In this document: piece after piece, positions 37,766 to 38,989 of the stretch
Layout of the letters: each line of letters starts with the position of its first letter
How positions within the stretch are numbered: position 1 is the first letter of the stretch
Assembly: GCF_017355185.1 (NCBI RefSeq)
Contig: NZ_JADILJ010000037.1
Coordinates: 1-38,989 of the forward strand
Direction of reading: 5' to 3'
Length of the DNA stretch: 38,989 nt
Source of the DNA: Rathayibacter sp. SD072
GTDB taxonomy: Bacteria; Actinomycetota; Actinomycetes; Actinomycetales; Microbacteriaceae
The notes under the pieces: model-generated
Seen by the model: only the letters and a program-made list of their open reading frames with translations
Database searches by the model: none
Told to the model about the DNA's origin: nothing
Translations under genes and position numbers: made by a program

Positions 37766-38989
37766 GTGGCGAGCACGCACCGGGCGCAGCCCTCTCCCCG
37801 CCGCAGGACCGCGCGAGCGTCGGCGGCTCCGGGCGATGCCGATCTGATCGCCCTCGTGCGCGAGGGAGATGCGGCCGCCTCGGCCGAGCTGTGGCGGCGC
37901 CACGCGTCGGCGGCGCGCTCCCTCGCCCGGGCCTGGTCCTCGCTCGACGCCGACGACCTCGTGTCGGAGGCGTTCCTGCGCACTCTCGACGCGATCGCGA
38001 AGGGCGGCGGTCCGGAGGGGGCGTTCCGCCCGTACCTGTTCACCGCCGTCCGCAACGCCGCCGCGACAGGGGGGCGGCGCAGCGGGCGCGAGCAGCCGCT
38101 GGACGCGATCGGCGGGGTCGCCGCCGATGACGACGGCCCGGAGGAGCTCGCACTCGCCGCGCTCGACCGCGACCTCGGCATCCGCGCGTTCCGCGCCCTG
38201 CCGGCGCGCTGGCAGGAGGTGCTCTGGTACACCGCCGTCGAGGGGATGACGCCCGCCGAGGCCGCCCCGCTGCTCGGTCTGCGGCCCAACGGAGTCGCCG
38301 CACTCGGCCACCGCGCCCGGGAGGGGCTGCGCGGGGAGTGGATCCAGCAGCACGTCAGCGTCACGGCGGCGGAGGGCGAGTGCCGCTGGGTGCTCCAGCA
38401 GGCCGGGGCCCACACCCGCGGGCGCCTCGCGCTCCGCGACCGTCGGCGCGCGGACGCCCACCTCGAGGAGTGCCCGTCGTGCCGTGGCGCCCTCGCCGAG
38501 GCGGCCGGGGCGAGCGCGCGTCTGGCGGTGGCGCTGCTGCCGCTCGTGGCCGGGGTCGGCGGCGCGACCGCCTACGCCGCGGCGGGCGGGGCCGGCGGGG
38601 CACCGGTCGCGGGCACGACGGGCGGAGCGGCCGCGGGCACGACAGGCGGAGCGGCGGCGGGCGCGGTGACGACCGGCAGCGCCTCCCTCGTCGCGGCGAT
38701 CGCTGCGGCGGGAGTGCTGCTGGTCGCCGGGATCGCGGTGGCGGCGCTGGTCCCTCCCGGCCCGACCCCGGGCGAGCAGGGCTTCGCCGCCCCCGCGAGC
38801 CCCGTAGCGCGGGCTGACTCCGGCGAGGACGCCGTGCCGCCGTCGCCCCCGACGGTCGCATCGCCGCCGACCGTCGTCTCGCCCCCGACCGTCGCCGTAC
38901 CGCCGGCCCCCGCCTCGACGGCACCTGTCCCGGCCAGCACCACGACGGTGACCCCCCCGCCGATCGGTGCTCCTCCTCCGTCCGGCACC
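37766..38989 (+). CDS. ECF sigma factor fused to anti-sigma module (3' partial)
   Basis: The reading frame stays open for 408 codons to the window edge. Residues about 24-100 form sigma region 2 (ADLIALVREGDAAASAELWRRH, DDLVSEAFLRTLDAIAKG, FRPYLFTAVRNAA). About 138-190 form region 4 (FRALPARWQEVLWYTAVEGMTPAEAAPLLGL, then GVAALGHRAREGLRG). A zinc-finger anti-sigma motif follows: H232-x3-C236-x2-C239 (AHLEECPSC). Then come hydrophobic segments (about 252-272 and 307-329) separated by a GTTGGAAA repeat, and a Pro-rich tail with repeated PPTV units. GTG 37766 has GGAGGAGG 6 nt upstream; CAGGAT (37731-37736) may be the -10. The protein is thus a membrane-tethered sigma factor carrying its own ZAS-like domain. 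The C-terminal domain lies outside the window. Confidence 0.82.
   Translation, partial: MASTHRAQPSPRRRTARASAAPGDADLIALVREGDAAASAELWRRHASAARSLARAWSSLDADDLVSEAFLRTLDAIAKGGGPEGAFRPYLFTAVRNAAATGGRRSGREQPLDAIGGVAADDDGPEELALAALDRDLGIRAFRALPARWQEVLWYTAVEGMTPAEAAPLLGLRPNGVAALGHRAREGLRGEWIQQHVSVTAAEGECRWVLQQAGAHTRGRLALRDRRRADAHLEECPSCRGALAEAAGASARLAVALLPLVAGVGGATAYAAAGGAGGAPVAGTTGGAAAGTTGGAAAGAVTTGSASLVAAIAAAGVLLVAGIAVAALVPPGPTPGEQGFAAPASPVARADSGEDAVPPSPPTVASPPTVVSPPTVAVPPAPASTAPVPASTTTVTPPPIGAPPPSGT

What the first reader, a model, noticed from the sequence alone, without database searches (positions are those of the whole stretch)
37766..38989. Sigma factor, zinc-finger anti-sigma and membrane anchor in one polypeptide
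An ECF sigma factor (regions 2 and 4) continues in frame into an HxxxCxxC zinc finger, hydrophobic segments and a Pro-rich repeat tail. Sigma and anti-sigma are normally separate proteins; a cis-inhibited, membrane-held sigma factor would need proteolytic release. ECF groups with fused zinc-finger and membrane extensions are known in Actinomycetota, but their mechanism is little studied.
Basis: partly seen in the sequence, partly recalled or inferred. Interest (0 to 1): 0.7.

Follow-up and report, generated by a model that had tools for sequence, protein, structure and literature searches.

The report
Sigma factor fused to anti-sigma domain
An actinobacterium encodes a gene-switching protein whose probable inhibitor, membrane anchor and outer stalk sit in the same chain; such one-piece switches are already described from Streptomyces, so this is a new member of a known but little-tested kind.

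Summary
The frame from GTG 37766 encodes ECF sigma regions 2 and 4, an anti-sigma-type zinc finger, two hydrophobic stretches and a Pro-rich tail, and runs off the contig. It is no frameshift artefact: of 88 relatives 87 have HxxxCxxC after the sigma part, and spacing from sigma 4 is 48 or 49 residues in 59 of 83 measured. Zinc ligands H, C, C are invariant in 61 of 61 aligned rows. Rathayibacter sp. VKM Ac-2754 has a complete 620-aa version whose end matches a fragment at the end of another contig of this genome. Some relatives carry bacterial Ig-like domains. Unnamed Streptomyces-like relatives with an NPCBM domain, like the described SCO4117/ECF52, fit the same profile. So this is an ECF52-like one-piece sigma/anti-sigma, a published kind (PMC8999054, PMC5826349). 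Cis-inhibition and proteolytic release are plausible but untested.

The parts
37766..38989 (+). Fused sigma/anti-sigma gene, 408 codons seen, 3' end off the contig
37754..37761 (+). GGAGGAGG, Shine-Dalgarno-like, 4 bases before GTG 37766
   Evidence: read; the stretch is also present in Rathayibacter sp. VKM Ac-2630
37889..38089 (+). Sigma region 2 (aa 42-108), with DADD (aa 61-64) at the place of the DAED core-binding motif
   Evidence: motif meaning from a passage of PMC8103513
38183..38323 (+). Sigma region 4 (aa 140-186)
   Evidence: 0.6 bit under Pfam cut-off; 45 of 45 rows of A1 match it at E<=0.01
38381..38485 (+). zf-HC2 anti-sigma-type zinc finger; ligands C206, H232, C236, C239
38522..38578 (+). 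Hydrophobic stretch 1 (aa 253-271, LLPLVAG), continuous with the last zinc-finger helix in the model; probably not a full membrane span
38687..38743 (+). Hydrophobic stretch 2 (aa 308-326), probable membrane span
38759..38989 (+). Pro-rich linker with SPPTV-type repeats (aa 332-408)
38924..38951 (.). 28 bases whose reverse complement begins the minus strand of contig C32; probable reason for the assembly break

Best explanation
It is an ECF sigma factor carrying its own class I zinc anti-sigma domain and a single membrane anchor, followed by a Pro-rich stalk and an outer part that is recognisably Ig-like in some complete relatives. The sigma part is held at the membrane and kept from RNA polymerase by the zinc domain in cis. 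A signal on the outer part leads to cleavage of the stalk or anchor; the freed cytoplasmic piece loses its zinc domain or changes shape and directs transcription. Shown by computation: domain order, intact frame, conserved zinc ligands, conserved sigma-to-zinc spacing, Ig-like ends in part of the relatives. Inferred: inhibition, membrane location, outside location of the tail, cleavage, signal, target genes.
For: Domains. H232, C236, C239 in 61 of 61 aligned rows, window included, and C (58) or H (3) at 206. The zinc part alone, as a profile against 177,635 PDB sequences, gives 6 hits at E<=1: RslA, RsiW, DdvA and ChrR twice, all anti-sigma factors, and one CHAT-domain protein (3hug is named RslA). 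Spacing from RA[RK] in sigma 4 to HxxxCxxC is 48 or 49 in 59 of 83. Acidic core-binding position kept: D or E at position 64 in 61 of 61 rows. Big_13 in 10 and Big_6 in 9 of 45 rows of A1; NPCBM, I-set plus ricin-B-type, or DUF3344 in others. Published precedent: SCO4117 (PMC5826349, passages) and IutY, where proteolytic release is shown (PMC8999054, passages).
Against: No experiment on this branch. The models give no confident arrangement of sigma and zinc domain. The own genome has one M50 protease match, but all 14 control genomes match too, so this does not discriminate. Two hydrophobic stretches would, if both span, put the tail inside. The complete Rathayibacter relative shows no Pfam sensor domain at E<=0.001, and most rows of A1 have no recognised outer domain either; the Ig-like nature of the window's end rests on likeness to relatives. 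A genome of the same genus (G045) has no match. No shared promoter was found in the one multi-copy genome tested.
Confidence: 0.65

Rival explanations
1. Zinc or redox switch without cleavage: oxidation or metal loss at the CHCC site opens the cis-complex while the protein stays at the membrane.
For: Cys ligands are kept in nearly all aligned rows; the zinc part resembles ChrR and RsiW among others, and soluble zinc anti-sigma domains are often involved in redox sensing (PMC7406223, passages).
Against: The long stalks and large outer parts seen in many complete relatives would be unexplained; three aligned rows have H for the first Cys; zinc is structural in RsiW (PMC7406223, passages).
Confidence: 0.13
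2. The zinc part does not inhibit its own sigma but acts in trans or as a positive partner needed for activity.
For: A SCO4117 strain with the sigma domain alone was still delayed in differentiation, though less than the deletion (PMC5826349, passages).
Against: Fixed spacing and conservation of both parts in one chain; in the truncated SCO4117 strain the gene's own expression was activated (PMC5826349, passages).
Confidence: 0.1
3. Membrane hairpin: both hydrophobic stretches span and the Pro-rich tail is cytoplasmic.
For: At least two hydrophobic stretches behind the zinc finger in 81 of 88 relatives at the threshold used, and in the window protein.
Against: Stretch 1 is weaker, has a Pro in many relatives, is under the threshold or displaced in L155, L156, L158 and one L162 copy, and is continuous with the zinc-finger helix in the model; relatives carry NPCBM, Ig-like and ricin-B-type ends, module types usually found outside the cell (location from general knowledge).
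Confidence: 0.08
4. Assembly or frameshift artefact joining separate sigma and anti-sigma genes.
For: The contig ends inside the gene; the copy in Rathayibacter sp. VKM Ac-2630 also lies at a contig end, without an open frame over the whole match.
Against: Complete unbroken fusions in Rathayibacter sp. VKM Ac-2754 and many other genomes.
Confidence: 0.02

Closest known systems
ECF52 group, SCO4117 of Streptomyces coelicolor (PMC5826349)
   Same: Sigma 2 + sigma 4, zf-HC2, membrane stretch, Pro-rich stalk, one chain, Actinomycetota. Three probable SCO4117 orthologues from unnamed Streptomyces-like genomes (L137-L139) fit the window family's profile over positions 2 to 232-234 of 236, E 6e-73 to 3e-71.
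   Different: L137 and L138 end in NPCBM (L139 was not scanned); the window's complete relative has no NPCBM match. In the tree they lie in different clusters, with weak deep support.
ECF48 and ECF53 groups (PMC8999054, passages)
   Same: Described there as C-terminal fusions with a zinc finger and one to two transmembrane helices, expected to be freed by proteolysis.
   Different: No reference sequences were at hand, so group membership was not tested.
IutY of Pseudomonas putida, ECF243 (PMC8999054, passages)
   Same: Sigma with its membrane-bound anti-sigma fused at the C-terminus; named there as the only case with shown proteolytic release.
   Different: Iron-starvation cell-surface signalling in Pseudomonas; its anti-sigma part was not compared here.
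Two-gene sigma/zinc-anti-sigma pairs: SigW/RsiW, SigL/RslA, SigE/ChrR
   Same: Zinc-domain profile matches their anti-sigma chains in PDB; sigma folds match.
   Different: There two genes, here one.

Membership tests
ECF sigma factor | Sigma-70 regions 2 and 4 only | tested here: met
   r2 over cut-off, r4_2 0.6 bit under, TIGR02937 over cut-off; sigma folds
Class I zinc anti-sigma domain (zf-HC2) | Hx3Cx2C with an upstream fourth ligand | tested here: met
Class I zinc anti-sigma domain (zf-HC2) | Profile resemblance to solved anti-sigma factors | tested here: met
   5 of 6 hits at E<=1 are anti-sigma factors
Class I zinc anti-sigma domain (zf-HC2) | Binds and inhibits its sigma | not testable with these tools
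   pTM 0.49 and 0.57 leave the domain arrangement open
ECF52 (SCO4117 type) | Sigma, zinc finger, membrane stretch and Pro-rich extension in one chain | tested here: met
ECF52 (SCO4117 type) | C-terminal carbohydrate-binding (NPCBM) domain | tested here: not met
   none at E<=0.001 in the complete Rathayibacter relative; the window protein itself is incomplete
ECF52 (SCO4117 type) | Placed with SCO4117 orthologues in a sigma-core tree | tested here: inconclusive
   separate clusters, weak deep support; three of seven canonical ECFs fell inside on long branches
ECF53 / ECF48 | Match to the group's own model | not tested
   no group models or reference sequences held; the paper asked for under doi 10.1093/nar/gkaa1229 is not held

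The most novel reading that the evidence does not exclude
One-piece sigma/anti-sigma proteins of this branch are self-contained monitors of the cell surface: each copy reads the state of a particular giant cell-wall protein encoded beside it and switches that protein's operon, so that up to 28 parallel, insulated switches run in one genome. The window's single copy would be the older, partnerless form that watches a core surface feature.
Probability: 0.3. Interest if true: 0.72.

Novelty: new member of a known kind. Interest (0 to 1): 0.42.

Why it matters
The fused groups ECF48, 52 and 53 are expected to be freed by proteolysis (PMC8999054, passages), and a review says that the predicted glycosyl hydrolase and carbohydrate-binding domains of ECF52 and ECF53 proteins still lack experimental validation (PMC10766802, passages). 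This finding documents a Microbacteriaceae branch in which some members have Ig-like instead of sugar-binding ends, with conserved zinc ligands and spacing, and many genomes with a single copy in which the model could be tested. The paired, multiplied form beside giant surface proteins would, if functional, be a modular way to run many surface proteins independently.

Tried and rejected
Frameshift or chimera: rejected. Shared promoter in G003: bipartite words upstream of all 28 copies or their leading giant gene did not exceed shuffles; in two subclades of five the best word was in 4 of 5, a value that 2 of 8 shuffles reached or passed in the first subclade and 0 of 8 in the second, which I do not take as a motif; recurring TTGGGGA stretches look ribosome-site-like. 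Intramolecular docking: not decided by two AlphaFold2 models; the PDB comparison covered mainly the sigma part, residues 1-178 of the model, and the absence of zinc-domain rows there says nothing. Unfused sigma relatives in large-genome actinomycetes: 12 stretches fetched, a sigma frame picked in 8 of 12, none with an HxxxCxxC frame within 600 bases downstream by a simple scan; left open. A C-terminal query from a relative against the own genome found nothing at E<=0.1, although the C32 fragment was found through its neighbour. Deep branching of the tree not trusted. Literature: 8 searches; by their listings none pointed to Microbacteriaceae fusions or to pairing with sorting-signal proteins, but most subscription papers are not held, and two papers asked for were not held. 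Of the papers cited I saw passages only.

Rows dropped: A1 holds 45 rows (window plus 44); A2 38 of those 45; A5 29 of 45; A3 61 of 65 prepared (both L078 copies, L155 and L156 left out); the tree took later-found copies only at E<1e-40. In the genome searches only the best candidates of each genome were scored (14, 19 or 30 at most), so copy numbers are lower bounds.

Full report
What is there. The window is the whole of contig C49 of a 3.88-Mb genome in 117 contigs. From GTG 37766 the frame encodes 408 residues up to the contig end. Pfam places Sigma70_r2 at 42-108, Sigma70_r4_2 at 140-186 (25.1 bits, cut-off 25.7) and zf-HC2 at 206-240. Hydrophobic stretches lie at 253-271 and 308-326, then a 30% Pro tail. 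The genome has 17 Sigma70_r2 matches, but only this place answers to the whole protein at E<=0.001.

Where it comes from and how it ends. The nearest named matches are Rathayibacter sp. VKM Ac-2630 (81% in the best segment, core residues 2-219 matched) and VKM Ac-2754 (70%, 2-237). In VKM Ac-2754 the gene is complete, 620 codons, 57.5% identical to the window protein over 393 aligned positions. In the own genome, contig C32 (66,224 bases) ends in a frame whose last 64 residues match the end of that protein at 58%, E 2e-18. Beside it lies, convergently, an MFS-type gene (C32:64847-66007; MFS named from its sequence, not searched). The same family lies next to, or in L048 one gene from, the sigma gene in L039, L040, L046, L048, L050, L061 and L147, but tblastn found it in none of L148, L149, L150, L152 or L178. 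The two contig ends share a 28-base inverted match. So the gene very probably runs from C49 into C32 across a gap; by L178 about 136 residues are unseen.

Is the fusion real and maintained? A protein search found 23 of 60 genomes of the same family at E<=1e-8, the own genome counted; the one other genome of the same genus in that sample, G045, had none. A profile of 38 cores (A2) found 50 of 149 genomes in the order, 66 of 197 in the class and 7 of 149 in the phylum at E<=1e-30; the own genome is in each count, the sets overlap, and some matches are sigma-only. Of the 45 rows of A1 (window and 44 relatives), 44 match r2, 45 r4_2 and 39 zf-HC2 at E<=0.01. H232, C236 and C239 are invariant in 45 of 45 (A1) and 61 of 61 rows (A3); position 206 is C in 43 and H in 2, or C in 58 and H in 3. 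In A2 one of 38 rows (L078) shows V at 206 through its alignment. Of 88 relatives 87 have HxxxCxxC in the expected range; the distance to it from RA[RK] in region 4 is 48 or 49 in 59 of 83 measured and 45-54 in 74, with five not measurable and six very short values that look like a wrong RA[RK].

Is the zinc part an anti-sigma domain? A profile of it alone (29 rows) against all PDB sequences gave 6 hits at E<=1: 3hug_B (RslA), RsiW, DdvA, a CHAT-domain protein, and ChrR twice (one search names 3hug). All 29 rows match zf-HC2. AlphaFold2 gives confident sigma 2, sigma 4 and zinc-finger helices but weak mutual placement (pTM 0.49 with the membrane part, 0.57 without). The structural look-up matched sigma folds only. 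So cis-inhibition is a good inference, not a result.

Topology. Stretch 2 is strong in many relatives (often 2.0-2.8). Stretch 1 starts about 7 to 17 residues after CxxC in most, is weaker, often has LLPL, and is under the threshold or displaced in L155, L156, L158 and one L162 copy. In the model it continues the last zinc-finger helix. Some relatives end in Big_6, Big_13, NPCBM, I-set plus ricin-B-type or DUF3344 modules. One span with the tail outside is the simplest reading; hydropathy alone does not prove it.

Known relatives. L137 and L138, from unnamed Streptomyces-like genomes, carry NPCBM. L138 has a TetR-type gene just upstream in the same direction (TetR named from its sequence, not searched), as described for atrA and SCO4117 (PMC5826349, passages). 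With L139 they fit the window family's profile over nearly its whole length with E near 1e-72. In the core tree window and L178 group with support 1.0 among Microbacteriaceae, the Streptomyces-like copies elsewhere with weak deep support, and three of seven canonical ECFs fall inside on long branches, so the deep order is unreliable. I therefore call the window protein ECF52-like, not ECF52. A review predicts proteolytic release for ECF48, 52 and 53 and names IutY as the only case where it is shown (PMC8999054, passages).

An unexpected setting elsewhere. One unnamed member of the family, G003, has at least 28 such genes, of which one (L166) lacks the zinc finger and one (an L162 copy) has no hydrophobic stretch. 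In 22 of 28 a neighbour within 600 bases is a protein of 700 or more residues with an LxxTG-like motif and a hydrophobic end near its C-terminus. One of these, L056, rests on a frame that leaves the fetched stretch, so 21 are firm; L164 counts one giant for two sigma genes. Among 186 other genes in the same 23 stretches 18 have such a neighbour, and 23 of 31 such giants adjoin a sigma gene. In several pairs the two frames overlap by 4 to 11 bases (L069, L071 twice, L077, L158). The pairing recurs in G017 (2 of 3), G019 (5 of 7), G024 (1 of 3), G090 (1 of 2) and G144 (1 of 2), 32 of 89 genes over 44 genomes in all; these genomes were chosen for having matches, some for many copies. Three giant proteins examined hold Ig-like domains: Big_9 in two, Big_6 and Big_13 in the third. 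The three sigma copies of L067 and L068 form one clade (0.999) and sit beside one giant family, c19, as if pairs duplicate together. The window's gene and the syntenic orthologues examined show no such partner.

Verdict. A sound observation of a known, experimentally thin kind. What is new to me is the Microbacteriaceae branch with Ig-like ends in some members and, outside the window, the multiplied pairing with giant surface proteins.

Noticed in passing
window 37563-37666 (-): ZMP/ZTP riboswitch (43.2 bits, cut-off 39) in front of glyA, so the sigma gene's own promoter space is only about 100 bases.
   Followed up: partly
window 19943-21261 (-): A second ECF sigma factor (region 2 at 21058-21261) followed by a separate membrane protein that looks like an RskA-type anti-sigma (resemblance recalled, not searched): a canonical two-gene pair on the same contig.
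   Followed up: no
G003 loci L056-L077 and L158-L168: At least 28 relatives of the fused sigma gene in one genome, 22 beside giant proteins with LxxTG-type sorting signals, some with overlapping frames.
   Followed up: partly
L232 (Rathayibacter sp. VKM Ac-2630): The closest copy has no single open frame over the whole match and its contig ends 70 bases after it: broken gene or assembly trouble.
   Followed up: no
L044 (G009; contig length equals Pseudolysinimonas kribbensis, L255): Copy whose tail turns into Arg-rich sequence after the zinc finger, as from a frame change.
   Followed up: no
L155, L156 (G290, G339): Relatives of about 1,260-1,290 residues with a long polar stretch between zinc finger and membrane span and no stretch 1.
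   Followed up: no
L259-L270: Unfused sigma relatives (E 4e-48 to 2e-42) in large-genome actinomycetes; in the 8 of 12 where a frame was picked no zinc anti-sigma frame was seen next door.
   Followed up: partly
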